From an uncultured Rhodobacter sp. (GTDB taxonomy: Bacteria; Pseudomonadota; Alphaproteobacteria; Rhodobacterales; Rhodobacteraceae), in the NCBI GenBank assembly GCA_945952585.1, contig CAMFII010000014.1, positions 1 to 46,554 on the forward strand: a DNA stretch of 46,554 nucleotides, in the 5' to 3' direction. The notes under the pieces were generated by a model. That model did not search any database. It worked only from the letters and a program-made list of their open reading frames with translations, and had not been told where the DNA came from. The position numbers and the translations under genes are program-made. Positions 20,967 through 46,179 of the stretch are shown here, in pieces. The number at the start of each line of letters is the position of its first letter. Position 1 is the first letter of the stretch.

Positions 20967-21233
20967 ATGGAGAAAAGCGCGGTCATCCTCGGGCTTTCGC
21001 GGCAAGCCAAGTTCCTCGGCCTGCCGATGCCCTATGCCATGGCAGTGGGAGCGATGACCGTGCTGCCCTTCATCCTCTTCAAGCCGGTCTGGTGGTTCCT
21101 GACTGCCCCGGTCTGGTACGGCCTCGCGCGTCTTGCCACCAAGGTGAACCCCAACGGGCATCACGTCTTTGCCGTCATGATGCAGGTGACGCCGCGCGCC
21201 ATTCTGAGCCGGAGGCGGCGCCATGTTTCTTGA
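20967..21233 (+). CDS. virB3: VirB3-like inner-membrane protein
   Basis: An 88-aa protein with the VirB3 pattern: a short N-terminal region (LSRQAKFLGLPMPYAM), a hydrophobic hairpin (AVGAMTVLPFILFKPVWWFLTAPVWYGL), then a basic tail ending in SRRRRHVS. VirB3 works with the VirB4 ATPase at the base of the machine. Its stop lies 11 bases inside virB4, which fits the tight VirB3-VirB4 pairing, and these two are fused in some systems. Confidence 0.88.
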   Translation: MEKSAVILGLSRQAKFLGLPMPYAMAVGAMTVLPFILFKPVWWFLTAPVWYGLARLATKVNPNGHHVFAVMMQVTPRAILSRRRRHVS

Positions 21234-23565
21234 GCGTTTGACGCCGCGGGGCAGGGCAGGGAGGCTGATCCCGACCGATCCGAAAATCTACTCCCATCTG
21301 CCTTACATCATCGAGCTTGATGACGAGGTCGTCCGCACCCGGGACAATGCACTGATGTTGTCGCTTGAGGTGACCGGCATCGACGGGGTCACGTCGGGCG
21401 CGGCCGCGGTGTCAGCCCTTCGGGCAGGCTTCGGGCATCTCTTGGACACGCTCGACGAGCGGTTCACCTTCTATCTGCACCGGATGATGCGGCCAGCGGA
21501 GACTGGCATTGCGCCCATCCGTGGGACGAGCTTCGCCGCCGACATCGACAAGGCCTGGAGCAGAGAGCTTAACCGTCGCAACCTGCAGGACTCTGTGCTG
21601 ATCCTGACCGTCGTCCGGCGGCAGGTGGCACCCCTTGCAGTTCCGCTCTTTGGCAAGGCCGCGGCCCGGGTCTGGGGCGAAGACACCGCGCGGCGGCTGG
21701 AAGAATTGCGCGAGGTGACCTCCATCCTCGAGACCGGTCTCGGCATCAAGACCCGCCGGATGAAGATCAGTGACGGCAGTCTGGTTGGCTTCTACGCCTC
21801 GCTTCTGACCGGTGAGTTGCGTGACCATCCGCGCAGCCCGTACTGCCTCCTCGCGGAGGATGCCGCCGGGGCTTCCGTGCAGTTTGGCAAAGGCGTGGTC
21901 GAGATCGAAGAGGGGACACCCACCGCGAAACTCGCCGCCGTCCTCTATGTCAAATCCTATGCCAATGCGACCTGGCCTGGGATGCTTGATGCACTCGGCG
22001 CCGCGCAGGATACGATCATCACCCACAGCTACACGCCGATTGAACGGGGCAGCATCGCCGAGCGGGTGAAACGCCGCGTCGCGCAAATGCGCTCCGCCGA
22101 AGACATCGCCGCCACTGTGGAGGCTCAGCTCTTCGAGGCTGCCGACAAGGCCGAGAGCGGCGCACTTGGCTTTGGCGTGCATCAGATGACGATCACGGTC
22201 TTTGCCTCAGATGAAGCGGCGCTCGACGCCGAGGTCGCCCGCATCCGCGGCATCGCGCATCAGAACGGCATGCGGCTCGTGCGCGAGGTGACAGCGCTCG
22301 AAGCGGCGTTCTTCGCCATGCATCCCGGCAATATGGACTATAGGGCGCGCGACATGACGGTGTCGTCGATCAACTTCGCGGACATGGCGGCTCTCCATGC
22401 TGCCGATACCGGGACGGAGAAGGCACGTCTGCCTTGGGCGACGCCGATCACCGCCTTTCAGACCCTGCAGGGCTCATTACACCGCTTCAGCTTCCACGAA
22501 CCGGGTGATCCGACGGCGGAACCGACCAACGGACACACCTTGGTCTTGGGCAAATCCGGCGGCGGCAAGACCACGACTGTCGCCTTCCTTGCAGCCCAGG
22601 CCCAGAGGGCAGGGCGTCGGACGATCATTTTCGACAAGGAAGCTGGTCTCAAGATGGCCGTGCATGCCCTCGGCGGCCGCTATGCCGAAGTGCGCGCGGG
22701 ACGCCCGACAGGGCTGAACCCGCTCGCGACGGAGGCCGGAGAGCGCGGCGAAGCATGGCTCCTCGACTGGCTGGTGGCCCTCCTGGAAAGCCGATCCGGG
22801 CCGATGACGCCGCTGCAGTCCGAAGCGCTCAAGTCCGCAATCGCGCAGAACGGCAAGGCACGCGAAGGATTGCGCAACTTCCAGAGTTTCCAGGAACTCT
22901 TTGGCGATGTCGGCGATGGCCTCGATCTGGCGCAGCGGCTCCGCGAATGGGGTCCGGATGGTCGGTATGGCTGGGTCTTCGGCGAGGCCGAAGAACCGGT
23001 GGTGGATTTCACCAGCCATGATGTGACGGCGGTCGATCTGACGGAAATCCTCGATCTCGGCACCGAGCGCACTGCGATCCTTGGCTATCTCTTCCGCCGG
23101 ATCGAAATGCTGATCGAGGAAAAGCGGCCGACGCTCATCCTGATCGACGAGGCCTGGAAGGTTCTCGACGACGAGTATTTCGCGAAGAAGCTCGCCGAAT
23201 GGCTGGTGACGGCCCGGAAGAAGAACGTCGTCGTCGTCATGATGACCCAGTTCCCGAGCCAGATCCGCGGCTCGAAGGCGCGGTCGATCCTGGAAGCTCT
23301 GCCGAACCAGCTTCTCTTTCCAAACGGCGAAGCAGCATCAGCCGACTATGACAGCTTCCGCCTCACCGATGGCGAGCTCGACTTCGTTCTTAACCCGATC
23401 CCCGGCCAACGACTGGTCCTGTCGCGCTCCCCGCGCGGCTCGACCGTTCTCAATGTCGATCTCAAGGCACTCGGGCCTTTGCTGACGGCGCTTGGCGGCG
23501 GTCAGGCGGGCATCAATGCCTTCGGTGCCGACTATGCCCAACGGCCCAAATTTTGGAAGGAATAA
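21223..23565 (+). CDS. virB4: VirB4 ATPase
   Basis: A 780-aa ATPase of the VirB4/TrbE family that powers pilus biogenesis and substrate transfer. Walker A is GKSGGGKT (443-450) and Walker B is LILIDEAWKVLDD (around 637-648), followed by the family's MMTQFPSQI. The N-terminal CagE/TrbE/VirB region is full length (YIIELDDEVVRTRDNALMLSLEVTG). The start overlaps virB3. A small lipoprotein gene follows seven bases after the stop. Confidence 0.96.
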   Translation: MFLERLTPRGRAGRLIPTDPKIYSHLPYIIELDDEVVRTRDNALMLSLEVTGIDGVTSGAAAVSALRAGFGHLLDTLDERFTFYLHRMMRPAETGIAPIRGTSFAADIDKAWSRELNRRNLQDSVLILTVVRRQVAPLAVPLFGKAAARVWGEDTARRLEELREVTSILETGLGIKTRRMKISDGSLVGFYASLLTGELRDHPRSPYCLLAEDAAGASVQFGKGVVEIEEGTPTAKLAAVLYVKSYANATWPGMLDALGAAQDTIITHSYTPIERGSIAERVKRRVAQMRSAEDIAATVEAQLFEAADKAESGALGFGVHQMTITVFASDEAALDAEVARIRGIAHQNGMRLVREVTALEAAFFAMHPGNMDYRARDMTVSSINFADMAALHAADTGTEKARLPWATPITAFQTLQGSLHRFSFHEPGDPTAEPTNGHTLVLGKSGGGKTTTVAFLAAQAQRAGRRTIIFDKEAGLKMAVHALGGRYAEVRAGRPTGLNPLATEAGERGEAWLLDWLVALLESRSGPMTPLQSEALKSAIAQNGKAREGLRNFQSFQELFGDVGDGLDLAQRLREWGPDGRYGWVFGEAEEPVVDFTSHDVTAVDLTEILDLGTERTAILGYLFRRIEMLIEEKRPTLILIDEAWKVLDDEYFAKKLAEWLVTARKKNVVVVMMTQFPSQIRGSKARSILEALPNQLLFPNGEAASADYDSFRLTDGELDFVLNPIPGQRLVLSRSPRGSTVLNVDLKALGPLLTALGGGQAGINAFGADYAQRPKFWKE

Positions 23566-27902: not shown

Positions 27903-28619
27903 ATGACCCGACGCTTCACATTTCTCATGGCGGGTCTTGTGGCCAGCCTTGTGACCCTGCCCGCCCTTGCCGAGACCGCCCCGAAATCCGGCAGTCACGA
28001 CGCGCGCGTCACCTATGCCACCTATGTTGAGGGCCAAGTCTACCGGATCACCACGCGGCTTAGGACAGTAACCCTCCTCGAGCTGGGCGACGGCGAGAAG
28101 ATCCAGTCCATCGCCATCGGCGATCTCGAAAGCTTCAAGATCGACAAGCTCGAGCGGTCGAACCTCTTCATCATCAAGCCGGTGGTAGCGGGTGCCACGA
28201 CCAACCTGACGGTCGAGACCCAGAAGAACATCTATTTCCTGCAAGTGACGGAAAGCGCCAAGGGCAGCCCGAACTATTCGGTTAAGTTCACCGTGCCGGG
28301 CAGCTCCCGCGGCACCTCGCCCGGAACCGACATCCTGGCGGCCCAGCCGATGACCTACAAAGTCATGAAGAAGGGCAAGCGGCTCCCCGACTTCGCGCCG
28401 GTGTCGATCTCGGATGATGGGCGGAAGACCACCTTTGTCATCCCGCCCGGCGCGCCGATGCCGACGATCTTCCGGGCCGATGCCAAGGGGCAGGAGTATT
28501 CGGTCAACTCCGCTGTGCGCGGCACCACGATCACCGTCAGCACCCGCTCCGAACGCTGGGTCCTGCGCTACGGCGATGAATATGTCTGCGTGACCGCGGA
28601 AGCGGGGACCGGCCAATGA
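27903..28619 (+). CDS. virB9: VirB9 outer-membrane-complex protein
   Basis: A 238-aa protein with a signal peptide (MTRRFTFLMAGLVASLVTLPALA, before ET). The N-terminal region has RVTYATYVEGQVYRITTRLRTVTLLELGDGE, and the C-terminal beta domain has KTTFVIPPGAPMPTIFRAD and the final block VSTRSERWVLRYGDEYVCV, both standard for VirB9/CagX. It builds the outer-membrane core with VirB10 and a VirB7-like lipoprotein. The ATG at 27903 was chosen for the signal peptide; the frame open to 27792 is a shadow of virB8. It overlaps virB10 by four bases. Confidence 0.94.
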   Translation: MTRRFTFLMAGLVASLVTLPALAETAPKSGSHDARVTYATYVEGQVYRITTRLRTVTLLELGDGEKIQSIAIGDLESFKIDKLERSNLFIIKPVVAGATTNLTVETQKNIYFLQVTESAKGSPNYSVKFTVPGSSRGTSPGTDILAAQPMTYKVMKKGKRLPDFAPVSISDDGRKTTFVIPPGAPMPTIFRADAKGQEYSVNSAVRGTTITVSTRSERWVLRYGDEYVCVTAEAGTGQ

Positions 28620-29935
28620 GCGAAGACGATCAGGACGGCAAACTCGCCGCGCGCATGGCCCGTATGAGATCTGCCGAAGCCCCAAAACGCCGACGCGGCG
28701 TGAACCCCTACGCCCTCTCGGCCGTCACCGCCGTGGCGGGCGTTGGCGTCGGGGCCTGGCTTGTCCTTGCAGCACCAGAGGCCCCTGCCCCGGCACCTGC
28801 GCTGGAAACCGCCTCGGTCAGTGATTTCCAGGGGGCGGGTGGGGCAGACGGGTTTTCGATCACGAAAGAAAAGCCGCAGATCGTCCCTACCGTCCCGGAT
28901 ACATCCGAAGCGGACCGGCTCAAGGCCGAGATCGAATCCCTGAACGCCCAGATCGCCGATCTGAAAGCCAATCCGGTGACCGTCACCGATGAGGCGGCGC
29001 TCGCGGACCTGAAAGTCCAGGTCGCGGCCCTCGATGCGGATGCAAAAGCTCGCGAGGCGGCCCTCTCCGATCTCGAACGCGAGAACATTCGGCTCCAGAC
29101 CGAGCTTGAAACCAAGGCGCTCGTCGAGGGTGACGGGGAGGCCGAGGCGGCACGGGCCCGCGAAGAGGAACTGGCCCGCAAGCGTCAGGAAGCCGAGATG
29201 CTGAAGGAAGCCCAGATCCATTCCGACATGGTGGCGATGCGCTCTTCCATGGATATGGGCGGGGAGGCGGGTGGCGCAGCCCCAGCCGGCCCCGGAAGCG
29301 GGGATGCCACTGCCACGGGCGATGAGGCCTTCCGGCGCGCGGGAGCCAAGTCGGCCGAGGTCCGCCAGGCGGAGGTGATCGCCAATCCCGCCTATACCGT
29401 GATGCAAGGCACCCTGATCGAGGCCTCGCTGGAAACCGCCGTCAGCACCGATCTTTCCGGCAATGTCGCCGCCATCGTCAGCCACGATGTCTGGTCCTTC
29501 GATATGTCCCGCGTCCTCATCCCACGCGGCTCCCGTCTCTTTGGCCGCTACGATTCCGACGTCGATGCCGGCCAGCGCCGGGTGCTGATTGCCTGGGACC
29601 GGATCGTGGCCACCGATGGCCAATCCGTGGAACTCGCAGCTTACGGCACGGACCGCATCGGGCGTTCCGGTCTGCCCGGCAAGGTGCGCAACCATTTCCT
29701 GCAACGCTTCGGCACCGCCGCGCTGATCTCCGTGATCGGGGCTGTCCCCGCAATCGCGGCTGCCCGGTACGAGGGTGACGAGGTGGCATCCGACACCGCC
29801 GAGAGTGTCGGCAATGACCTTGGCGAAGCCGTGAATGATGTCATGGCCGATTACCTCCGCATCCCGCCCACGATCAGCGTCAATCAGGGGGCTGTCGTCA
29901 TGGTCCGGGTCGATGCCGACATCGAGTTTTATTGA
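28616..29935 (+). CDS. virB10: VirB10 envelope-spanning scaffold protein
   Basis: A 439-aa VirB10/TrbI protein. It has a cytoplasmic tail, one inner-membrane helix (PYALSAVTAVAGVGVGAWLVLAA, about 31-53), an Ala/Pro-rich stretch, a long coiled coil (about 96-205, including ADRLKAEIESLNAQIADLKAN) and the C-terminal beta-barrel domain with VMQGTLIEASLETAVSTDLSGNVAAIVSHDV, VLIPRGSRLFGRYDSDVDAGQRR and WDRIVATDGQSVEL, which are strongly conserved. It senses ATP use and opens the outer-membrane pore. It overlaps virB11 by one base (TGATG). Confidence 0.96.
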   Translation: MSEDDQDGKLAARMARMRSAEAPKRRRGVNPYALSAVTAVAGVGVGAWLVLAAPEAPAPAPALETASVSDFQGAGGADGFSITKEKPQIVPTVPDTSEADRLKAEIESLNAQIADLKANPVTVTDEAALADLKVQVAALDADAKAREAALSDLERENIRLQTELETKALVEGDGEAEAARAREEELARKRQEAEMLKEAQIHSDMVAMRSSMDMGGEAGGAAPAGPGSGDATATGDEAFRRAGAKSAEVRQAEVIANPAYTVMQGTLIEASLETAVSTDLSGNVAAIVSHDVWSFDMSRVLIPRGSRLFGRYDSDVDAGQRRVLIAWDRIVATDGQSVELAAYGTDRIGRSGLPGKVRNHFLQRFGTAALISVIGAVPAIAAARYEGDEVASDTAESVGNDLGEAVNDVMADYLRIPPTISVNQGAVVMVRVDADIEFY

Positions 29936-30921
29936 TGAGCTACCTCGATACTTATCTTGGGCAGATCGACGCGGCACTCGCCGACCCGGCCGTCATGGAG
30001 CTTGCGATCAATGCTGATGGCGCGATCTGGGTGGAACGGTCGGGGCAGATCCACATGGGGCCAAGCGGGCTTGCGCCCCTGCCTGCGCGCTCTGTGCGCG
30101 ATCTCGCCTCCCAGATCGCCAATTCGACCGCGAACACCTTTACGGAAGCCGCACCCCTTGTCTCGGCTGCAGTCCGCTACCGCGAGCTTATGCTGCGCTG
30201 TCAGGTGGTGGGCACGCCCGCCGTCTCCGGCGGGACGGTGATTGGCATCCGGGTGTTTCGGTCCCGGCAGGGGGACACGATGCGCGCGCCGCGTTCCTTC
30301 AGCTTCCTGCGCGGGCAGGAGAAATCCCTGGAGGACGAGCGGCGGGCCATGGTCGCGGAAATTCGCGCCGGGTCCGAAGGGGCGGACGTCGATGCCTTCC
30401 TCGGGCGCCTTGTCACCGAACGGCTGAACATCATCGTCTCGGGTGGCACCTCGACGGGCAAGACCGAGCTTGGCCGCAAGCTTCTGGAGATGGTCGCCGC
30501 CGACGAGCGCATCGTCACCATAGAGGATTCCCTCGAACTCCTGCCGGGTCAGCCCAACACCGTGAGCCTGATCGCGCAGCGCGACGAGGCCTCGCCCCGC
30601 TCGGCGGACAAGCTTCTGCAAGCGACCCTGCGCCTTCGGCCAGACCGGATCATCCTCGGCGAATTGCGCGGGTCCGAGGCCGCGACGTTTCTCGATGCGA
30701 TCAACACCGGGCATTCGGGTTCGTTCACCACGTTGCACGCCCATTCGGCCCGCAAGGCCATGGACCGGCTGGCGCTTCTCGTCATGGCACAGGGAACCAA
30801 GCTCAGCTTTGCCGAGGTCATTCGTTACCTCGAGACCTCGATCGACGTGATCCTGCAGATGGGCCGCCAGGGCGACCGTCGCGGGATCATGGAGATGTAT
30901 TTCCCCGGGCTCGAGGACTGA
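29935..30921 (+). CDS. virB11: VirB11 hexameric ATPase
   Basis: A 328-aa secretion ATPase. Walker A is GGTSTGKT (170-177), followed by the Asp box IVTIEDSLELLP, a Walker B region RLRPDRIILGELRGSEA and the His box TGHSGSFTTLHAHSA, all in the standard order. It works at the cytoplasmic face with VirB4 and VirD4. The ATG at 29935 is preferred over a TTG one codon upstream. A 65-base gap separates it from the 719-aa gene, with no clear terminator. Confidence 0.96.
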   Translation: MSYLDTYLGQIDAALADPAVMELAINADGAIWVERSGQIHMGPSGLAPLPARSVRDLASQIANSTANTFTEAAPLVSAAVRYRELMLRCQVVGTPAVSGGTVIGIRVFRSRQGDTMRAPRSFSFLRGQEKSLEDERRAMVAEIRAGSEGADVDAFLGRLVTERLNIIVSGGTSTGKTELGRKLLEMVAADERIVTIEDSLELLPGQPNTVSLIAQRDEASPRSADKLLQATLRLRPDRIILGELRGSEAATFLDAINTGHSGSFTTLHAHSARKAMDRLALLVMAQGTKLSFAEVIRYLETSIDVILQMGRQGDRRGIMEMYFPGLED

Positions 30922-30986: not shown

Positions 30987-33146
30987 ATGGACCAGGACAT
31001 TGACGGCCTGCAGACGAACGGGGCCGCGGAGCGGAAGAAGGAATACTTCTCCGTCCGCTTGACCTTCTCCGGGACTTCCCAGGAGTTCGAATACCCGCGT
31101 CTTGCGGGTGAGGCCTTCTTCCGGGCCGATCCGGCTGAGCGGCCTTCGGTCACCCATGTCGATGGCAACACCGCCCGGACCATGGCCCGGACGGAACTCC
31201 ATGGGCAGCACGAGAGTGGCGAAACGCGGTATTTCAAATCTCTGCCGGACTCACACGCCCCCGATGCAGAATTCCAGGCCGGGTTTTTGGCGGCAATGGA
31301 GGCTTCGATCACCGAGCGCCTGGAGAAGGTCACACACGGCCGGGATGGCGCAAATGTCGTCGAGCGGCTGGATTCCGGGCTGAAAGACGACCTTGAGGCC
31401 TTCGCGCGCCGCGAACCGGAGAAGGCTGCAAGCCTTTGGACTGATCGGACGGAAGAACCTGCACCAGGACCGATATTGCAGGCGGCAGTGAAGGCCCGGG
31501 AAGGGGTGGTGGAAGCGGAAGCGCTGGTTGGTCAGGTCTTCACGGCGGAGAAGCCGCAGGTGGTTGCGACCGGAGATTGGGTGACCACGGACCGGGATGT
31601 CGAGTTGCGCCCGGTGACTGTCGCAACCGACAGGGGTCTACATGCAGGCTTTGAGGCAAGGGTGCCGGAAGGCGAGACGGGGATCAGCTTTTCGGACCGG
31701 GCCTTTGCGACCAGTCGCGATGCCCTGCGCCACGCCTGGGATTTCTACGAAGGCGGCGAAGAGGGGCTCGAGATTGCCGTCGGCCGGGCCGCGGTCATGG
31801 ATCACAACACGGGCGACGATGCGGACCGCAGGCCGTCGGGCCTCGTGCTCGAACATCGGGAACAGCCGGAATTCCCCCGCCCGGAAACCGCAATCTACGC
31901 AGGCGAAGAAGCCCAACTGGTCCTGACCCTTGGTCGAGACACCGAGGCTAGCCGCGATCTTGCGGAACGTCTGATTGCCGACCCCGATTTCCGGAAGGTG
32001 GTGGCCGAGCATATCGCCGATGCCGAGGCCACCCTTGGCACCGGTCGGTTTGTCGACGGCGAAGGCTCGAGAGGCTTTCTGCCCGAGGAACTTCTGGCCG
32101 TCTCCTCCTACGGCCCTGATGGCAGCGCTCAGGTTCTGGCCAAGTTTCCGGATGAAGGGCCGCTGAGTGAGGCCCTGGCCAGGCATCTGGCCGAGAGCCC
32201 GGTGCTCATGGGACACGCCGAGGAACAACGGCTGCGTAGTGACTTCACGGCTGATCCCGCGCGGGCCATCTCCGCCTGGGTGGCGCAGTCGAGCGCCCGG
32301 ATTGATCGGTTGCCGTCGGACCGACAAGACGACCTTCGAGCGGAAATGCAGGGCATCGCCAAGGAAGCGGCAGCAGCCTTTGGTCTGGACCGGGATCAGG
32401 CCGGCCGTGAGGCCCCTCCCCGTTCGACGCTCTACAGTACGGCGATCAGCCCGACGACCTTGACCGTTGGTGGTGAAGAGACAGAGCTTCAATCCGGCAG
32501 TGTCGGCAATCTGCAGGCAAGTCTGACCCTCAACGCCCGCCTTGCAGGCATCGACGCCGAAAAGCTTGGCAAGCGTCTCGAAACCGGTGCCGCCAACGCC
32601 CGCGAAGAGGAAGTTTGGGTGAAATCCGATCTCAGCGACGTCGCCAAGCGTCACGGCTATGACCTCGACAACCCGCAAGGCCGCAGCGCAGCCGCCGAAC
32701 GCCTGGATTGCTTCTACGAACGCGCCGCTGAGATGATCCAGTCCGCCCGCGGCATCGACGTTTCGCGAGCCCCTGATCCGATGGTCGAGGCCCTGGACAA
32801 GATGGCGAAACTCCATGCCGATCAAGGTTCTGTCGCCTTCCGCAATGAGACCCAAGCGCGGGATTTCACTGAGGAGATGAAGGAGCGTTATGGGGCCTCC
32901 GTGCTGAAAGACATCGTCGCCGGACGCACCGATGCCTTGGCCAAGGATGTTCCCGACGCGAGCGCCCGCCAGGCTATGGCAGCGGCCGTTGTTTCCGCGG
33001 CAAAGGAACACCCTTCCCTCGGCCTCAGCGCCCATGAGGTCGAGGCTGCAGAGCGCCGGATGGCTGCCGAGGCCGCGAACAAGCCGCCGGAACATGCGCG
33101 CGCGCCTGTCCATGACCGGGCGCATGCCAAGGACAGGGAGTTCTGA
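30987..33146 (+). CDS. 719-aa protein sharing its C-terminal domain with the relaxase; possible T4SS substrate
   Basis: A soluble, acidic 719-aa protein with no signal peptide, membrane helix or enzyme motif that I recognise. Residues about 480-695 match the C-terminal part (about 382-600) of the relaxase encoded at 43803-45629. LETGAANA-x-EE-x2-WV-x-SDL (15 of 20 positions identical by eye), AGRTD-x-LA-x-DV and AVVSAAK-x-H-x2-LGL (24 of 43) are shared in the same order. The N-terminal two thirds is not found in the relaxase. The gene lies between virB11 and virD4, the coupling protein that picks substrates. My inference is that the shared domain is a translocation or docking module and that this protein travels to the recipient. 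A structural role in the machine is the alternative. Confidence 0.7.
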   Translation: MDQDIDGLQTNGAAERKKEYFSVRLTFSGTSQEFEYPRLAGEAFFRADPAERPSVTHVDGNTARTMARTELHGQHESGETRYFKSLPDSHAPDAEFQAGFLAAMEASITERLEKVTHGRDGANVVERLDSGLKDDLEAFARREPEKAASLWTDRTEEPAPGPILQAAVKAREGVVEAEALVGQVFTAEKPQVVATGDWVTTDRDVELRPVTVATDRGLHAGFEARVPEGETGISFSDRAFATSRDALRHAWDFYEGGEEGLEIAVGRAAVMDHNTGDDADRRPSGLVLEHREQPEFPRPETAIYAGEEAQLVLTLGRDTEASRDLAERLIADPDFRKVVAEHIADAEATLGTGRFVDGEGSRGFLPEELLAVSSYGPDGSAQVLAKFPDEGPLSEALARHLAESPVLMGHAEEQRLRSDFTADPARAISAWVAQSSARIDRLPSDRQDDLRAEMQGIAKEAAAAFGLDRDQAGREAPPRSTLYSTAISPTTLTVGGEETELQSGSVGNLQASLTLNARLAGIDAEKLGKRLETGAANAREEEVWVKSDLSDVAKRHGYDLDNPQGRSAAAERLDCFYERAAEMIQSARGIDVSRAPDPMVEALDKMAKLHADQGSVAFRNETQARDFTEEMKERYGASVLKDIVAGRTDALAKDVPDASARQAMAAAVVSAAKEHPSLGLSAHEVEAAERRMAAEAANKPPEHARAPVHDRAHAKDREF

Positions 33147-33148
33147 CC

Positions 33149-35137
33149 ATGCAACGTATTGCGCTGTTGCTCCCGCTCGGCTTGACGGCTGGTGCTCTGG
33201 TCGGCCTCATTGCCGGCGGCCTCGTTCTCAACCTGATCCTTGGCCGCGATCCGAACGCGACCGGCATATTTGTCCTGATCGAGGAATTCCCCGGCTTCGC
33301 CCGGCTGACGTCCGTGCCTTGGGTTCTGCCCTGGCAGATCGTCGGTGCCTCGACCGTGGTCTTCACAATCGCCGCCGTCGCCCTGACCTTCCGCCAGCAA
33401 CTCACGGGCTATGGTCAGGCCAAGTTCCAGGCCCGACCCGAGATGAAGGCGAATGGCCTTCTGCAGCCTTTGGGCGCAGGGATGGTCTTCGGCAAACTCG
33501 GGGCTCCCTCAAAGCGCGCGCCTTACGTCAGCGCCACTTTCCAGAAATTCCCGCATTGTCTCGTCGTCGCGCCCACCCGCGCCGGCAAGGGCGTGGGCTA
33601 TGTCATCCCGAACACGCTTCTGTTCAACGGCAGCATCGTCGTTCTCGACGTGAAGGGGGAGATTTTCGAGGCCACGTCCCGGCACCGGCAGGCCGAAGGC
33701 GACGCGGTCTATCGCTTCTCGCCTTTCGATTTTGAACACCCGACCCATCGCTACAACCCGCTCGAGCGCGTCGCCCGCATTGAAAATCTCGAACAGCGAT
33801 ACACCGAACTCGCCAAGATCTCGGACTATTTCTTGACGGTCTCGGACAAGGGGACGGCTGGCGACTTCCTGACCGAAGGGCGCGAGCTGTTCGTCGCTGC
33901 AGGGCTTCTTGCCATTGAGCGAGGCAGGCCCACCATCGGCGAAATCAGCCGCATCCTCTTTGGTCGTGGTGCGACCCAGGAGATCTACGGCGAGCATGCC
34001 GAGGAGGTGAAACACCCCAACGCCGCCCAGACTTTCCGAAAGTTCGCAGGCTATTCCGACAGGACCTTGTCCTCGCACGCCTCGGTCCTTGGTGGCGCCG
34101 GCATGACGCTCTGGAACAACCCGGCCGTTGATCGGGCCACTTCCGGGAACGACTTCTCCTTCACGGACCTGCGCAAGCGACCAATGTCGATCTATGTCGT
34201 CGTCAACGCCGATGACATCCGCACCTTGTCGCCGCTCGTTCGTCTGTTTTTCGGCGAGCTCATCGCCACGATGCGTTCCACCCTTCCCGACCCGAAGACC
34301 GAGCCCTGGCCCGTCATGGTCATGCTCGATGAATTCGACCAACTCGGGCCTATGCCCATCGTCGAGCAGGCCCTGAAACAGCTCGCCGGTCACGGCGCGC
34401 GAGTGTCGATCATCACCCAGTCGATCCCCGGCCTCGACAACATCTATGGCGAAAACGTCCGCCTGTCGCTCGAGTCTGCCGCTGGCATGAAGCTCTACCT
34501 CGCGGCCAACGACAAGAAGACGGCGGGGGAGATTTCGGACGCTTTGGGCAAGACGACGAAGCTCTCGGTGTCGGACAGTGTTTCCCGGGATCGGGACTTC
34601 ATGCAGCGACGCTCGGTAAGTCGGCGGATGGAGGAGCGTCCCCTCCTGACCCCCGACGAAGTGCGGCGGCTGAACCCGGATCAGGCCATTCTCATTCCGG
34701 AGAGGCAGAACCCGCTCCTCGTCCAGCGGATCGTCTATTTCCAGGACCCGACCTTCAAGACGCTCTTTGAGGCGCAATCCGGGCCCCTGCCCTACCCGCC
34801 CAAGGAAGCCGCCGCGGTTCAGGTGCTGACCGCGCGGATGGAAGCGCTGGAGCGCCGATTGGCCGAACAGATGGTGGTCGATTTTGTGCGTCCGGAGAAG
34901 GCCAAGGCGGACGCCCCGGTGGAAGCCGAGCCGAAGCTCGCGGCCGAGGTTGCGGCGCGGCAGCAAGTCTCCGCGAAGGAGGTAGAGGTAGAAGCCGATG
35001 CCAAGCAGGTTGCAGGGCAAGAACCAGAAGCGGCCGCTGAACCCGAGGTTGATCTCGATGCCCTGAAACCATCGGTCACCATTGCAGTCGCCAAGATGAG
35101 CAAGTTTTCACAGAAGCTCACAGGCATGGTGGCTTGA
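33149..35137 (+). CDS. virD4: VirD4/TraG-type coupling protein
   Basis: A 662-aa type IV coupling protein that brings the relaxase-DNA complex to the channel. Two N-terminal membrane helices (about 5-31 and 60-80) are followed by the ATPase: Walker A APTRAGKGVG (141-150), VVLDVKGEIFE, Walker B VMVMLDEFDQLG (LDE at 393-395) and IITQSIPGLDNIYGEN. A long Ala/Glu-rich C-terminal tail (from about 570) contains substrate-contact-type acidic sequence. It follows the 719-aa gene by two bases, suggesting co-expression with a possible substrate. It is the last T4SS gene before the dmd operon. Confidence 0.95.
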   Translation: MQRIALLLPLGLTAGALVGLIAGGLVLNLILGRDPNATGIFVLIEEFPGFARLTSVPWVLPWQIVGASTVVFTIAAVALTFRQQLTGYGQAKFQARPEMKANGLLQPLGAGMVFGKLGAPSKRAPYVSATFQKFPHCLVVAPTRAGKGVGYVIPNTLLFNGSIVVLDVKGEIFEATSRHRQAEGDAVYRFSPFDFEHPTHRYNPLERVARIENLEQRYTELAKISDYFLTVSDKGTAGDFLTEGRELFVAAGLLAIERGRPTIGEISRILFGRGATQEIYGEHAEEVKHPNAAQTFRKFAGYSDRTLSSHASVLGGAGMTLWNNPAVDRATSGNDFSFTDLRKRPMSIYVVVNADDIRTLSPLVRLFFGELIATMRSTLPDPKTEPWPVMVMLDEFDQLGPMPIVEQALKQLAGHGARVSIITQSIPGLDNIYGENVRLSLESAAGMKLYLAANDKKTAGEISDALGKTTKLSVSDSVSRDRDFMQRRSVSRRMEERPLLTPDEVRRLNPDQAILIPERQNPLLVQRIVYFQDPTFKTLFEAQSGPLPYPPKEAAAVQVLTARMEALERRLAEQMVVDFVRPEKAKADAPVEAEPKLAAEVAARQQVSAKEVEVEADAKQVAGQEPEAAAEPEVDLDALKPSVTIAVAKMSKFSQKLTGMVA

Positions 35138-41547: not shown

Positions 41548-43635
41548 TCAGCCTGAGTTTTTCTCCTGCCGTTTCGCGATCAAAGCCGCGAGTTCAGGCA
41601 GATCGGCACCAACGACGCCCGCCGCGCCGATTTCAATCAACTTGCGGTCCTCCTTGGTCATGCCTTTCTTCGGCCATGCCGACTGGAACCTGTCCAGGGC
41701 CTCAGAAAACCCGGATGCCCAATCGCCCTGCGCCTTCTTCGATCGACTGGATATCGAGGCCACGAACTCGGCGGGTTCGGACGATATTTCGGCAACCGCC
41801 TGGGCTCGCATCATCAGAAGGTCCATAAACCGCTGGAAGCGAGACGGGTCGATCCGGGGCAGGACGGCGTCCAGTATCCGGGGCAGCCATTGGTTAGGCA
41901 TGATGATTTTCGGCGCGATGACGATCCCGATCAGGTAGCCATCAAGCCAGTCTGACGAAAGGCCCGTTCCGCGCAGCAGCGCGGCAACTTCACCCTTCTT
42001 CTCGGGCTCGGGGGCCGCTTCGGCCAAATCTTCGAGCGAGGCCTCAGGGTCGAAATCCGGATCATCCCGCACCCAGGCCTCGATCGTCTGTTCGTGTATA
42101 TCGAGCATGACCGGGATCTTCTTCAGCTCCCGGCCATCAAGAAGCGCCATGGCGCAAGCGACAAAACCGGTCGCATCCGGGTGAAGGCTTGTCTCCAGCA
42201 CATCGGCGCTGCGGGCCATGATACGGGCCCACCAGTCGCGCCGGGTCTCGAGCCATTTCCAGAGCGCGGCCTCCGCCGAGCGGGCGCTGCGCGCCTTGTC
42301 GAGGACCGCACGGGCTTCATCGCTGTCCTCGAACCAGCTTTCGATGATCTCGTGCCGATCCCACCAGTCTTCGCTGGCCATGATCAGGGCACCCTGTTTC
42401 CGCAGCGGAAGCGCCTTGACGGTCGCGAACGATCCCATGCCGGCAATAAGATCTGGCGTCGATCTGGCCTCCGGGCGCAGCCCGTCGAGGCCGCAGAGAC
42501 GCGCCACCTCGATCAACCCCGGCACTGGAGGCAGATCGCGGGCAAGACCATCGGCAAGCGCGAGAGACACGGCCCGGCGCAAACAGTCGGCCGTCCCGGT
42601 CAATGCGCCGACATCTTCCGACATGCGCTCGATGATAGACTTCTGCTCCCGGGCGTTGGCACATGGAATGGTGTAGGCGTCCTTTACGCCTTGCCCCTGT
42701 TTCAGGAGCAGCATCGCCATCTTGCGCTGCGATCCGGCTTGCAGCGCGACACCGATGCTCTGCGCCCCACCTCCATCCGGTAAGGTGATGCGGATGCCGT
42801 GGATCTTCCATGGGGTCTGGGCCGGGTCGGCAACAACGCCTTTGCGCATGGCCTCCTTGATGACCAAATCGACCCTTCCCCGTGCCGCATCCTCGGGCAT
42901 CCAACTCCGCAGCACGACCAATGTTGCCAGAATGCGACCCGGAAGGTCGCCGCGCGCAAGCCGATCGGCCAGACCTTGCGCTGCGGCAAGACGGATATGC
43001 GGTGCCGGGTCGAGCAACCAGAAACAGGCCAGATCAGCATGCAGCGCATCGCTGCGGCCCACCGAATAGGCCACCACATGATCGCGCATCTCCGGGGGCA
43101 TGGCCGGAAAGCTTTCGGTCAGGGCCTGGTGCAATGCAAGTGGATCGCCCTCTGCCTGCTGGATCAGTTCAGCGAAAAGCCCGTCAAGCAGGGCTTCGCC
43201 TTCGACGGGATTGGCCGTACGTCGCCCATTTTCCGAAATGACCTCCTCGCGGTGCAACTCCAGAGAAGCCGGGGCGGTCAGGCCATTGCGGGTCCAGAGC
43301 CGAGCGAAGATCAGATTGTGGGCAGGCGTCATCCGCCCCTGTCGCCGCGCAAGATCAAGCGCATCCTCGGCAGTCTTGAGAAAGGTCTGGCCACGGGCCT
43401 TGCCGTTTTCCCTGGCAATACGGGCGGCATCGAGGCCTGCGCCGAGCAGATCCAGAAGGCCCTCGTCATTCGGCGAAGGGGTTTCGATTGCACATAGCTG
43501 CGCGACGATCTGGCCACCCAGGGCCGGACGATGCAAGAGGTCGAAACTCATGCGTTCAAGAACGTCGCGCCGCGCGCCGAAGCCATCGTCGCCCGCAGCC
43601 GCAAGGGCGGCCAATGCCTCATCGATCCGACTCAT
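41548..43635 (-). CDS. large protein with HEAT-like N-terminus and UPF0149/YecA-like C-terminus
   Basis: A 695-aa protein of unknown role. The segment LSSDWLDGYLIGIVIAPKIIMPNQWLPRIL (about 555-590), followed by FMDLLMMRAQAVAEI, matches the LDGFL-x-A-x2-IGP-x3-P-x2-WLP pattern of UPF0149/YecA proteins. The long N-terminal part is helical and repetitive (for example HIRLAAAQGLADRLARGDLPGRILATLVVLRSW), suggesting HEAT-like repeats. No signal or membrane segment is visible. The Met at 43635 is the best start; the frame runs open to 43815. It lies 167 bases after the relaxase gene in the same direction, so it may be part of the mobilisation unit, but no link to transfer is shown. Confidence 0.65.
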   Translation of the reverse strand: MSRIDEALAALAAAGDDGFGARRDVLERMSFDLLHRPALGGQIVAQLCAIETPSPNDEGLLDLLGAGLDAARIARENGKARGQTFLKTAEDALDLARRQGRMTPAHNLIFARLWTRNGLTAPASLELHREEVISENGRRTANPVEGEALLDGLFAELIQQAEGDPLALHQALTESFPAMPPEMRDHVVAYSVGRSDALHADLACFWLLDPAPHIRLAAAQGLADRLARGDLPGRILATLVVLRSWMPEDAARGRVDLVIKEAMRKGVVADPAQTPWKIHGIRITLPDGGGAQSIGVALQAGSQRKMAMLLLKQGQGVKDAYTIPCANAREQKSIIERMSEDVGALTGTADCLRRAVSLALADGLARDLPPVPGLIEVARLCGLDGLRPEARSTPDLIAGMGSFATVKALPLRKQGALIMASEDWWDRHEIIESWFEDSDEARAVLDKARSARSAEAALWKWLETRRDWWARIMARSADVLETSLHPDATGFVACAMALLDGRELKKIPVMLDIHEQTIEAWVRDDPDFDPEASLEDLAEAAPEPEKKGEVAALLRGTGLSSDWLDGYLIGIVIAPKIIMPNQWLPRILDAVLPRIDPSRFQRFMDLLMMRAQAVAEISSEPAEFVASISSRSKKAQGDWASGFSEALDRFQSAWPKKGMTKEDRKLIEIGAAGVVGADLPELAALIAKRQEKNSG

Positions 43636-43802
43636 TGCCACGTCTTGCCCGCCGTACTGTCCGAATTCGGCGACCAGCCTAGCGAAGCGGCTGTGCCTTG
43701 TCAGGAAGATATGGCAGCCGTGTCTGACGACAGAATGGCGGGCACGCCGACCGTGGCCAGAGCCGACGGAGCAGACCGGGGGTGGCGCGCACCGGGACCT
43801 GA

Positions 43803-45629
43803 TCACAGCTCCCAATCCGCCACGCTCTTGCGCTCCGATTGTCCGGCCAGATGGCGCTCCGCCACCGTCGCCTGCCTCAAAGTCAGACCCAAGGCCACAT
43901 GCGATTTCGCCGCTGAGACCACTGCCCGTGCGATCCAGCGTCGCTCGGCTTCATCCTCGACATCCCGCGCCAGCACGTCCGTCCGACCTGCTGCAAGATC
44001 TGCCACGATGCCTTCGCCATATCGCCGCCGCAGTTCGTCTGCGAAGCGCTCGGCATGAGCATCCCCCCGGAACTCGACCTTGCCCTCGGCCTTCAGGATC
44101 CGACCCATGGACCGCAGCGTGCGCACAAGTCGGTCGTTCACAGGCACGGTTTCATGGGTAACAGCATGGTCAATCGCCTTGGCTGCTTTGTCGTAGAACT
44201 CTTGCAAGTCCTCGGCCGCGCGCTTTCCCTGATCAGGGTCGCGCGGGTCCAGTCGTCGCCGACCAGCAAGAGCCAGAAGATCACTGCGCACCCAATCCCG
44301 CTCTTCCCAAGCGTTCGCCGCGCCAGTTTCCAGACGGCTGGCGATACGCTCTCCGCTCAGACCAATTGCAGTCGCACCCGCCACGATCTCCGCGCGCAGC
44401 CGCTCCGCCGCCCCGGGCTGCAGGGCTGTTTCCGCCCGGCCCCGCGTCAGGGTATCACCATCAAGCGCCACGCCGTAGACCGTAGACTGCGGCGTCATCT
44501 GGAGAAGCTGCGCGCCGCGCGCATCGCCAAGCCCGCGGGCGATGTCGATGGCATATCCATAAAGCTCGTCCCGCAGTTCCTTGCGCTCTACCACCGGGGC
44601 CTTGCGGATCCTGCCTTCCGTCTCGGTCATCCATCCGGCGAAATGCCGCTCCAGATCAGCGCGCTCGAGCGTCGCCGCCTCAGCCGGGAAGGGAGAAAGC
44701 ACCCCGCCCTGCCGAAGCACTTCCTCGGCCTTGGCAATCTTCTCGGCGATCTCCGGCAACCCGGTCAGAGCCGCCACATGGCTCAGGCTGCGCATGGCGT
44801 CTGCCGTGCGCGCCATGGTAGCGAGTGCATCCTCCAGCGCCCTGCCCTCACGCGGCCGCACCTCCGGTGCCCTGCCTTCTTCCCGCGCCCGTTCGATCTC
44901 TGCCCGCAAAGGACCGTAGGTCAGCAACCCCCGCTCTGCCCGCGAGGTCGCATCCAGGAACACACCTTCTTCGGCCGCAATGGCCACCATGCGCTCTTTC
45001 ATCGTGTCGAGGTTGAACGCATGCTCCTTCGCCATGAAAAACCAGCTGTCGTTCAGCGTGCCCCGGTTGTTCACGACGATATGGACATGCGGATGTGCCC
45101 GGTCGGTGTGCAATGCCGCGACGTAGGACCAGACATCGTCCTGATGGTCACCCGACTGGAACATCTCGAAGGCCCAGATCTCGGCAATCAGCTTGGCCTT
45201 CTCGGCCCGCACATGGGACGGAAAGCTCAGAAGCAGATGGCTGGTGTGCCCGTTCTTGGGCGACCCACGCCAATCTTCGACCCAGTCGCCGATGATGTCT
45301 TTTCGTTCGTCCTTGGTCAGCCCCTTGGCATCTGCATCCAGCACGACCCCGTTGCCAAAGATCGATGCCGACTTCGAGAAGAGGTAGTCCATCTGGGCCG
45401 CCAGCTCCCTGGCGTTCGCCGTGCCACCCTTGCCGATCTTCTTGATGACCGCCGCGTTCGATCCCAGCGAAAACCGCCACAGCTGGCTGGCGCGCGGCGA
45501 GAATCGAAAGCCCTGCCGAGAGGAGGAAGAGGGACCGGGTTTCACGCGCCCTGACTGGGGACGCAGGAAGTCGAGGTCGCCAAGAACAGCCTCTGCCAGC
45601 CCGATGGGCCGCGATCCAAGCTTAACCAT
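43803..45629 (-). CDS. relaxase/mobilisation nuclease (VirD2/MOBP type)
   Basis: A 608-aa relaxase that nicks at oriT and is carried with the DNA into the recipient. The three-His metal site is clear: HTDRAHPHVHIVV, with His174, Asp176, His179, His181 and His183. The likely nicking tyrosine is Tyr82 in QMDYLFSKS, and HTSHLLLSFPS (128-138) is the intervening motif. The C-terminal part (about 382-600) is shared with the 719-aa protein encoded between virB11 and virD4. The ATG at 45629 has CAGGAGGG upstream and is preferred over a TTG at 45656. It overlaps the MobC-like gene by eight bases. Confidence 0.9.
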   Translation of the reverse strand: MVKLGSRPIGLAEAVLGDLDFLRPQSGRVKPGPSSSSRQGFRFSPRASQLWRFSLGSNAAVIKKIGKGGTANARELAAQMDYLFSKSASIFGNGVVLDADAKGLTKDERKDIIGDWVEDWRGSPKNGHTSHLLLSFPSHVRAEKAKLIAEIWAFEMFQSGDHQDDVWSYVAALHTDRAHPHVHIVVNNRGTLNDSWFFMAKEHAFNLDTMKERMVAIAAEEGVFLDATSRAERGLLTYGPLRAEIERAREEGRAPEVRPREGRALEDALATMARTADAMRSLSHVAALTGLPEIAEKIAKAEEVLRQGGVLSPFPAEAATLERADLERHFAGWMTETEGRIRKAPVVERKELRDELYGYAIDIARGLGDARGAQLLQMTPQSTVYGVALDGDTLTRGRAETALQPGAAERLRAEIVAGATAIGLSGERIASRLETGAANAWEERDWVRSDLLALAGRRRLDPRDPDQGKRAAEDLQEFYDKAAKAIDHAVTHETVPVNDRLVRTLRSMGRILKAEGKVEFRGDAHAERFADELRRRYGEGIVADLAAGRTDVLARDVEDEAERRWIARAVVSAAKSHVALGLTLRQATVAERHLAGQSERKSVADWEL

Positions 45630-46179
45630 GGCGCGCGCCCTCCTGGGTTTCGACAAACTTTCGGAACAGCGCCACGCCCTGCCGACGGCGTTCTGCGATG
45701 ATCTGGCTCATCGCCTTTGCCACCATTGGCAGCGACCGGCGCAGATCTTCCACCGACGCCCACTGCGCCTTGACCATCGGTGCCCTGCCCCGGTTTGCCG
45801 CCAGCGCGATCTGGTTCACGTTGGTGCCGATCTTGGCCAGCTCGTAGCGGATCTCCTCCAGCCGCGTGCTGTCTTCCCTGCTGAACTCGAGGAAGCCCGA
45901 GGCCATCCGCACCAGCGAACGCACTCCATCCGAGCGGGATTTCGCGCCCAGTTGGGTGCAGAGCGCATCGAAGGCTTGAAGCTCTTCGGCAGGCAGACGG
46001 CAACTTACAACCTGGCCCAAGCTCTCGACTCGCGGCCGCCCGCGGTGCGCCCGTTGCTGCGCTGCAGAATCAGCCAGATCGCAATTCGCTTTGCCTGAAA
46101 CACCGGACCCAGACTTAAGTCGTATTTTGCGCAGCTCTGATTTTTCTGCCAACTTCCGCCACCGATTATTTGTAGACAC
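45622..46179 (-). CDS. MobC-like relaxosome accessory protein
   Basis: A 185-aa DNA-binding accessory protein. The middle has a ribbon-helix-helix-like stretch (VVSCRLPAEELQAFDALCTQLGAKSRSDGVRSLVR), and the C-terminal part has ELAKIGTNVNQIALAANRG, the G-x-N-x-NQIA-x-x-N motif characteristic of MobC/VirD1-type proteins that help the relaxase melt and nick oriT. The ATG at 46179 has CAGGA seven bases upstream. The stop lies inside the start of the relaxase gene, so the two are co-translated, and oriT is expected just upstream. Confidence 0.85.
   Translation of the reverse strand: MSTNNRWRKLAEKSELRKIRLKSGSGVSGKANCDLADSAAQQRAHRGRPRVESLGQVVSCRLPAEELQAFDALCTQLGAKSRSDGVRSLVRMASGFLEFSREDSTRLEEIRYELAKIGTNVNQIALAANRGRAPMVKAQWASVEDLRRSLPMVAKAMSQIIAERRRQGVALFRKFVETQEGARHG

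What the first reader, a model, noticed from the sequence alone, without database searches (positions are those of the whole stretch)
30987..33146. A domain shared by the relaxase and a protein encoded between virB11 and virD4
Seen: residues about 480-695 of the 719-aa protein align in order with residues about 382-600 of the relaxase at 43803-45629. Both have LETGAANA-x-EE-x2-WV-x-SDL (15/20 identical by eye) and AGRTD-x-LA-x-DV ... AVVSAAK-x-H-x2-LGL (24/43). The remaining parts differ. Known: relaxases carry translocation signals read by the VirD4 coupling protein. Inferred: this domain is a T4SS recruitment module, and the 719-aa protein is a co-transferred protein that enters recipients with the DNA. 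That would be an undescribed protein substrate encoded inside the T4SS operon.
Basis: partly seen in the sequence, partly recalled or inferred. Interest (0 to 1): 0.82.

Follow-up and report, generated by a model that had tools for sequence, protein, structure and literature searches.

The report
Relaxase tail reused by neighbouring protein
A protein encoded inside a bacterial DNA-transfer gene cluster carries the same C-terminal part as the enzyme that leads plasmid DNA into a new cell, which suggests (but does not prove) that it is recruited to, and perhaps sent through, the same secretion channel.

Summary
The similarity is real: residues 422-699 of the 719-aa protein align without gaps to the C-terminus of the window's VirD2-like relaxase (minus strand): 107/278 identical, E 1e-51; far above 500 shuffles. 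The shared part has two pieces, D1 and D2, plus a short tail: 719-type proteins end D-R-E-F, the nearest relaxases D-W-E-R/L. The gene lies between virB11 and virD4 wherever flanks could be read and is under purifying selection. In Paracoccus plasmids the same slot is empty (2 seen) or holds shorter, different proteins (4 read), all with an acidic-hydrophobic end, one with D2, one with a D1 piece. D2 plus the tail also ends MOBQ relaxases of three 20-25 kb Paracoccus plasmids. Being handed to a T4SS is the common denominator I see, so a recruitment module is the best reading; transfer into recipients is inferred. An N-terminal domain links the protein to PromA TraO-type proteins encoded just after virD4. 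Precedent: BID domains shared by relaxases and effectors. No structure was obtained.

The parts
30987..33146 (+). 719-aa slot protein between virB11 and virD4
   Evidence: ORF and translation; same slot in relatives; dN below dS
31032..31481 (+). N-terminal domain (residues 16-165) shared with PromA TraO, a Methylomonas plasmid protein and a P. mendocina pPME5 protein
31857..32213 (+). middle domain (residues 291-409) shared with a Sphingobium LPD7 protein encoded between a lytic transglycosylase gene and virB2
   Evidence: E 6e-19; context
32250..32756 (+). D1 part of the relaxase-like C-terminus (residues 422-590; boundary with D2 approximate)
32757..33065 (+). D2 part of the relaxase-like C-terminus (residues 591-693)
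33132..33143 (+). C-terminal tail D-R-E-F
29932..30921 (+). virB11
   Evidence: TIGR02788 E 1.6e-70, below its curated cut-off
33149..35137 (+). virD4 coupling protein; ATG 2 bases after the stop of the 719-aa gene
   Evidence: NF010424 E 8.9e-130, below its curated cut-off; coordinates
43803..45629 (-). VirD2-like relaxase (608 aa from the conserved ATG)
   Evidence: PF03432 E 2e-9, above cut-off; conserved start
44154..44660 (-). D1 of the relaxase
43845..44153 (-). D2 of the relaxase
43806..43817 (-). C-terminal tail D-W-E-L of the relaxase
45622..46179 (-). VirD1/MobC-like relaxosome protein
   Evidence: PF05713 E 3.9e-6, above cut-off; NF010432 E 1.2e-11, below cut-off
21223..23565 (+). 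virB4
   Evidence: TIGR00929 E 1.6e-133, below its curated cut-off
28616..29935 (+). virB10
   Evidence: NF038091 E 2.6e-55, below its curated cut-off

Best explanation
The C-terminal ~300 residues of the 719-aa protein are a copy of the relaxase's recruitment region for the VirD4/VirB channel: D1-D2 plus a conserved acidic C-terminal tail. Through it the protein docks on the coupling protein encoded directly downstream and is delivered to the recipient like the relaxase, but without DNA; its N-terminal domains are the passenger. Shown: homology, one group for the 719-type domain, fixed position, purifying selection, recurrence of D2 and tail on MOBQ relaxases and of the tail on different slot proteins. 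Inferred: that D2 and tail contact VirD4, that the protein is translocated, and that the N-terminal part acts in the recipient (by analogy with transferred primases and polyvalent proteins).
For: E 1e-51, shuffles. virB11 upstream in 26 of 26 and virD4 downstream in 27 of 27 loci with readable flank, out of 30 ORFs (window, a genome seen twice and identical copies included). Of 109 distinct ORFs with the domain 73 have the relaxase nuclease, 29 the 719-type N-terminus, 7 neither (cut copies count apart, so the window's gene counts twice). 719 domains form one group, 100/99. Tails: D at -4 and E at -2 in 85 and 100% of 26 slot proteins, 90 and 94% of 31 relaxases that score over 250 bits after those ending THG were dropped. 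MOBQ relaxases of pTT13-6, pLM20P4, pAMI7: D2 at E 2e-14, 2e-16, 3e-15, tails DWER, DWER, GWEL; pLM20P4 and pAMI7 hold a VirD4-like gene and no VirB4, VirB10 or VirB11 match at E 1e-3. Paracoccus slot proteins, 4 read, end DLDL, DLEL, DLEL, NMDL. Slot empty in pAK2 and pYEE5, so the protein is accessory. N-domain relatives lie directly after virD4 in a Methylomonas plasmid and one gene after it in PromA plasmids.
Against: No test of transport or binding. D2 was found in 1 of 4 Paracoccus slot proteins; three 719-type proteins (L033, L096, L097) lack a piece of about 75 residues from D1, so only the tail is common to all, and one of 9 Paracoccus relaxases (GWSI) departs from it. Relaxases of other subtypes with D1/D2 end differently (EKGxTHG, GETERGQxH). 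VirD4-like genes on the two MOBQ plasmids are 28-30% identical to the window's, and none was found on pTT13-6; PLSDB types pAMI7 as conjugative, MPF_T, against my reading that it lacks a channel. A slot protein's domain is no closer to its own relaxase than to others (36.0 against 36.0%, 10 pairs). Tails are not positively charged (mean net -0.03 and -0.67), unlike the BID case. PromA TraO-type proteins do not share D1/D2. No structure was obtained.
Confidence: 0.58

Rival explanations
1. Docking adaptor: the protein binds VirD4 (or the relaxosome) through the relaxase-like part and regulates or primes DNA transfer in the donor, but is not itself sent across.
For: Gene next to virD4 with a 2-base gap; slot genes are variable and can be missing, as regulators can be. 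All sequence evidence fits equally.
Against: The multi-domain N-terminus shared with TraO/LPD7-type and phage-plasmid proteins looks more like cargo than like an adaptor; that is weak.
Confidence: 0.22
2. The shared region is a nucleic-acid or relaxosome-binding domain (oriT, VirD1, ssDNA or self-association) and has nothing to do with recruitment; the protein helps process the transferred strand.
For: Relaxase C-termini often hold DNA-processing domains (recalled); the region is found in 51 of 295 family genomes. P0001 has a sub-threshold 19-residue match to the DnaB-binding domain of primase inside D1 (E 0.08).
Against: D2 with hardly any D1 is grafted on MOBQ relaxases, which have another nuclease and presumably another oriT; a conserved extreme C-terminus is typical of T4SS signals (PMC6509941, passages), less so of DNA binding (general knowledge).
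Confidence: 0.15
3. Decaying relaxase paralogue: a duplicated relaxase that lost its nuclease and was fused by chance.
For: A relaxase lies directly before virD4 in L004 and, read by eye, in L132 and L133: the place held here by the 719-aa gene.
Against: dN below dS in every part with a usable value in 7 of 7 comparisons; fixed position.
Confidence: 0.03

Closest known systems
BID domain (relaxases, VbhT, PezT/Zeta-BID and Bep proteins of alphaproteobacterial VirB/VirD4 systems)
   Same: One C-terminal region shared by a relaxase and by other proteins encoded beside the same T4SS, plus a short C-terminal tail; proposed T4CP signal (PMC6509941, passages).
   Different: D1/D2 have no Pfam family above cut-off and no PDB sequence match better than E 0.04; tail acidic-hydrophobic, not positive; no FIC or Zeta toxin domain; gene lies between virB11 and virD4.
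PromA TraO and related LPD7 proteins
   Same: N-terminal domain homologous (E 3e-32 to 3e-38 for three TraO proteins); gene one place after the coupling-protein gene.
   Different: pTer331 TraO has an LPD7 domain (E 1e-19); pTer331 and pIPO2T TraO have another C-terminal domain, itself seen in MobP1 and TraA relaxases, toprim proteins and LPD7 proteins but not in the PromA relaxases scanned.
Conjugally transferred primases (SogL; R1162 MobA/primase)
   Same: Proteins sent through conjugation systems (SogL: PMC8406263, passages; R1162: title seen in its reference list).
   Different: No primase domain above cut-off in the 719-aa protein.
Polyvalent proteins of phages and conjugative elements
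   Same: Multi-domain proteins encoded with T4SS genes, proposed to enter the new host with the DNA (PMC5512222, passages).
   Different: No catalogued polyvalent domain matched P0001 itself.

Membership tests
BID-domain T4S substrates | region shared by relaxase and other T4SS-linked proteins, C-terminal | tested here: met
BID-domain T4S substrates | sequence of the BID family | tested here: inconclusive
   no Pfam family above cut-off, no good PDB match, but I did not confirm that Pfam holds a BID model and compared no BID sequence directly
BID-domain T4S substrates | four-helix bundle with hook | not tested
BID-domain T4S substrates | positively charged C-terminal tail | tested here: not met
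   mean net charge (K, R, D, E) of last 25 residues -0.03 in 30 slot ORFs (two cut at the 3' end among them) and -0.67 in 33 relaxases
VirD2-like MOBP relaxase (P0001) | nuclease domain | tested here: not met
   none in P0001; no 719-type ORF matched the nuclease profile
LPD7 / polyvalent proteins | LPD7 or another catalogued polyvalent domain | tested here: not met
   22 family members, P0001 included; three proteins that share its N-terminal or middle domain have LPD7
LPD7 / polyvalent proteins | encoded within conjugation genes | tested here: met
T4SS-translocated protein | VirD4-dependent delivery to recipients | not testable with these tools
   needs a transfer assay

The most novel reading that the evidence does not exclude
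The virB11-virD4 gap of Rhodobacteraceae conjugation systems is a cargo slot: it holds rapidly reshuffled proteins sent to recipients under a portable two-part address (D2 plus a D/G-x-E/D-x tail) that the same plasmids, and small MOBQ plasmids using them, place on their relaxases; PromA TraO would be the same idea with another relaxase-type C-terminus.
Probability: 0.42. Interest if true: 0.85.

Novelty: new variant of a known kind. Interest (0 to 1): 0.68.

Why it matters
How coupling proteins recognise clients is known in few systems. Here evolution has already done the domain swap: the same ~100 residues and a similar tail sit on MOBP relaxases, MOBQ relaxases and non-relaxase proteins, so a minimal signal can be tested directly, and tail plus slot position gives a way to list further candidate protein substrates of conjugation.

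Tried and rejected
Internal duplication (D1 against D2) and links of D1/D2 to the TraO C-terminus or to the N-domain: profile comparison at background. PromA TraO sharing its C-terminus with its own relaxase: not so; that domain is widespread in other relaxases, toprim and LPD7 proteins, so PromA is only a loose parallel. Closer likeness of slot protein and its own relaxase: none (36.0 against 36.0%, 10 pairs); the distance correlation (r 0.87, p 0.0008, 11 same-replicon pairs, one relaxase stood in for by an identical copy from another genome; r 0.69, p 0.004 for 10) shows joint descent only. Phage link of the N-domain: none in phage records, none confirmed of 30 pattern matches in viral contigs, no PHROG. 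Other carriers of the domain in the family: of the 7 'neither' ORFs five were printed: one cut by the locus end (L032), one at a contig end (L134), one in a gene with an internal stop (L140) and two (L132, L133) with the relaxase N-part in another frame upstream; the other two lie among L048-L100 and were not examined; L100, a 125-aa ORF, was not followed up. Search beyond the family: 2 of 385 class genomes, both of the same family. The N-domain in the phylum: 1 of 398 genomes, the window's own. Left out of the tree: matches of under 240 model positions, so long relaxases and R. capsulatus-type slot proteins. The tail scan used a pattern drawn up after seeing the tails, on 6 loci; of 142 non-overlapping long ORFs 6 fit, 4 slot proteins, 1 relaxase, 1 other; the overlap filter dropped some true genes, the window's relaxase among them. 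It shows that the pattern is uncommon, not more.

Full report
CHECK. The similarity is real and far above chance: 107/278 identical without gaps, E 1e-51; Smith-Waterman 483 against a maximum of 83 in 500 shuffles, while the rest of the two proteins scores 43 against a shuffled mean of 39. It covers residues 422-699 of the 719-aa protein and 333-610 of the 617-aa relaxase ORF, which lies on the minus strand; the start conserved in relatives is the ATG at 45629. Only the relaxase has a nuclease domain (PF03432); a VirD1/MobC-like gene precedes it. The 719-aa protein has no Pfam family above cut-off (one 19-residue match to DnaB_bind at E 0.08), none in NCBIfam at E 1, none in PHROGs or PADLOC at E 0.01; profiles of the shared part and of the whole family find nothing better than E 0.04 in the PDB.

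NEIGHBOURS AND RELATIVES. The window is a whole 46,554-base contig; the family, Rhodobacteraceae/Paracoccaceae, is inferred from named relatives. Relatives were taken from plasmids, from whole genomes and from one scan of genome contigs with a mixed alignment (53 loci). Of 30 ORFs classed as the 719 family (the window, one genome seen twice and identical copies included), virB11 lies upstream in 26 of 26 with readable upstream flank and virD4 downstream in 27 of 27 with readable downstream flank. In 7 pairwise comparisons dN is below dS in every part with a usable value, mostly 0.05-0.35 of it; in five of them residues 166-290 have the highest dN of all parts longer than the tail or share it. 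One D1 comparison is saturated in dS, one D1 pair has hardly changed, and one tail has no synonymous change.

ANATOMY OF THE SHARED PART. Profile searches split it into D1 (model 1-171) and D2 (168-253). In relaxases of about 780 aa some 180 residues lie between D1 and D2. 51 of 295 family genomes have the region against 2 of 385 in the class, both of the same family. Among 109 distinct ORFs with the domain in the loci at hand (cut copies count apart, so the window's 719 gene counts twice), 73 have the relaxase nuclease, 29 the 719-type N-terminus and 7 neither (see Tried and rejected). On a tree of 67 domains, the 25 of the 719 type form one group (100/99) beside 42 relaxases; nesting inside relaxases rests on a midpoint root and 97/76 support, and the bootstrap had not fully settled. 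Distances of the two proteins on the same replicon are correlated (r 0.87, 11 pairs), which shows joint descent, not contact.

THE TAIL. After a variable linker both kinds of protein end in a conserved tetrapeptide: in 26 slot proteins of the 719 family D at -4 in 85%, E at -2 in 100%, F at -1 in 96%; in 31 relaxases D 90%, W at -3 84%, E 94%, then R 71% or L 16%. The 31 are those scoring over 250 bits after relaxases ending THG were dropped, so this describes one subtype. Acidic residues at both places occur in 3% of four-residue stretches a little upstream. Relaxases of other subtypes have other conserved ends (EKGxTHG, GETERGQxH).

PORTABILITY, THE MAIN NEW EVIDENCE. In Paracoccus plasmids with related relaxases the virB11-virD4 gap is empty in pAK2 and pYEE5 and holds other, shorter genes in pBM152 (333 aa) and a P. 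pantotrophus plasmid (351 aa); a search with the latter led to pTAV1 (376 aa; no virB11 annotated, an IS21 element lies between virB10 and the gene) and pBM151 (137 aa). These are mosaics: the 333-aa protein has D2 with the end of D1 (E 1e-12), the 351-aa one a D1 piece (E 2e-7) and part of the 719 middle region (E 8e-15), the other two neither; their ends are DLDL, DLEL, DLEL and NMDL. Of six further relaxase neighbourhoods read, two show the empty gap, in two the stretch stops inside virD4 and in two it shows no T4SS gene. The relaxases of nine Paracoccus plasmids end GHEL (six), DLDL, DRER and GWSI; -2 is acidic in 8 of 9. MOBQ relaxases, of another class, carry D2 as their C-terminus in pTT13-6, pLM20P4 and pAMI7 (E 2e-14, 2e-16, 3e-15), with tails DWER, DWER and GWEL; a fourth MOBQ relaxase, one small gene away from virD4 in P. 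alcaliphilus, has no D2 but ends DRER. pAMI7 and pLM20P4 (about 20.5 and 20.7 kb) hold a VirD4-like gene (28-30% identity to the window's) and no match to the window's VirB4, VirB10 or VirB11 at E 1e-3; pTT13-6 has none of these (annotation). PLSDB nevertheless types pAMI7 as conjugative, MPF_T. So D2 and tail travel between proteins whose shared property, as far as I can see, is being handed to a T4SS.

N-TERMINAL PART. Residues 16-165 are homologous to the N-terminus of PromA TraO and of a Methylomonas plasmid protein directly after virD4 (E 3e-32 to 5e-43), and to part of a protein of P. mendocina pPME5 (E 1e-23) encoded near a 2,775-aa LPD23 polyvalent protein; residues 291-409 match a Sphingobium LPD7 protein in the virB operon. 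In PromA one gene separates the coupling-protein gene from traO. The function of these domains is unknown; 'DNA primase' is the depositors' label for TraO in some records, and the scans gave no primase domain above cut-off.

READING. Best explanation: D2 plus tail is a T4SS/coupling-protein address and D1 an additional relaxase-derived piece; the 719-aa protein uses it to join the VirD4 queue and is probably delivered to recipients. The step from recruitment to delivery is inference. A donor-side docking adaptor is the strongest rival. Results against a simple picture: D2 was found in only one of four Paracoccus slot proteins; three 719-type proteins (L033, L096, L097) lack about 75 residues of D1 (L033; all three as gaps); partners are no more alike than expected from joint descent; other relaxase subtypes with D1/D2 have other tails; and the VirD4 proteins on the MOBQ plasmids are distant.

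KNOWN WORLD. The BID domain is the nearest precedent for a relaxase region shared with other clients of a VirB/VirD4 system, with VbhT carrying a near-copy of a relaxase BID (PMC6509941, passages; PMC5675462, start of abstract in listings only). [quoted passage not shown] Polyvalent proteins were proposed to travel with the DNA (PMC5512222, passages). For PromA, the passages seen list TraO as a transfer protein only (PMC4290620). The listings of paper searches showed no description of this domain, slot or tail; they cover open-access papers only, and four of the listed papers were opened, in passages.

Noticed in passing
window 41548-43815 (-): A 755-aa ORF with a UPF0149 domain (E 4e-11) follows the relaxase; a relative was seen beside 15 of 33 relaxase loci. 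Weak PADLOC match PDC-S12, E 3e-7. A possible accessory gene of the transfer region.
   Followed up: partly
Left as seen.
   Followed up: no
L161, L162: Paracoccus plasmids of about 20 kb with a MOBQ relaxase and a VirD4-like gene but no match to the window's VirB4, VirB10 or VirB11.
   Followed up: partly
L035 10895-11260: A domain of about 90 residues is shared by MobP1 and Ti-type TraA relaxases, toprim proteins and LPD7 proteins of plasmids (1,817 records match): another conjugation-wide shared module.
   Followed up: partly
L032 20753-24041: Hachiman HamA and a helicase gene lie about 640 bases after virD4 in G. aquarius: defence genes in the transfer region.
   Followed up: no
P0001 residues 422-585, L068 against L058: Synonymous divergence in D1 is 0.02 against 0.2-0.9 elsewhere in the gene: a sign of recent recombination confined to D1.
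   Followed up: no
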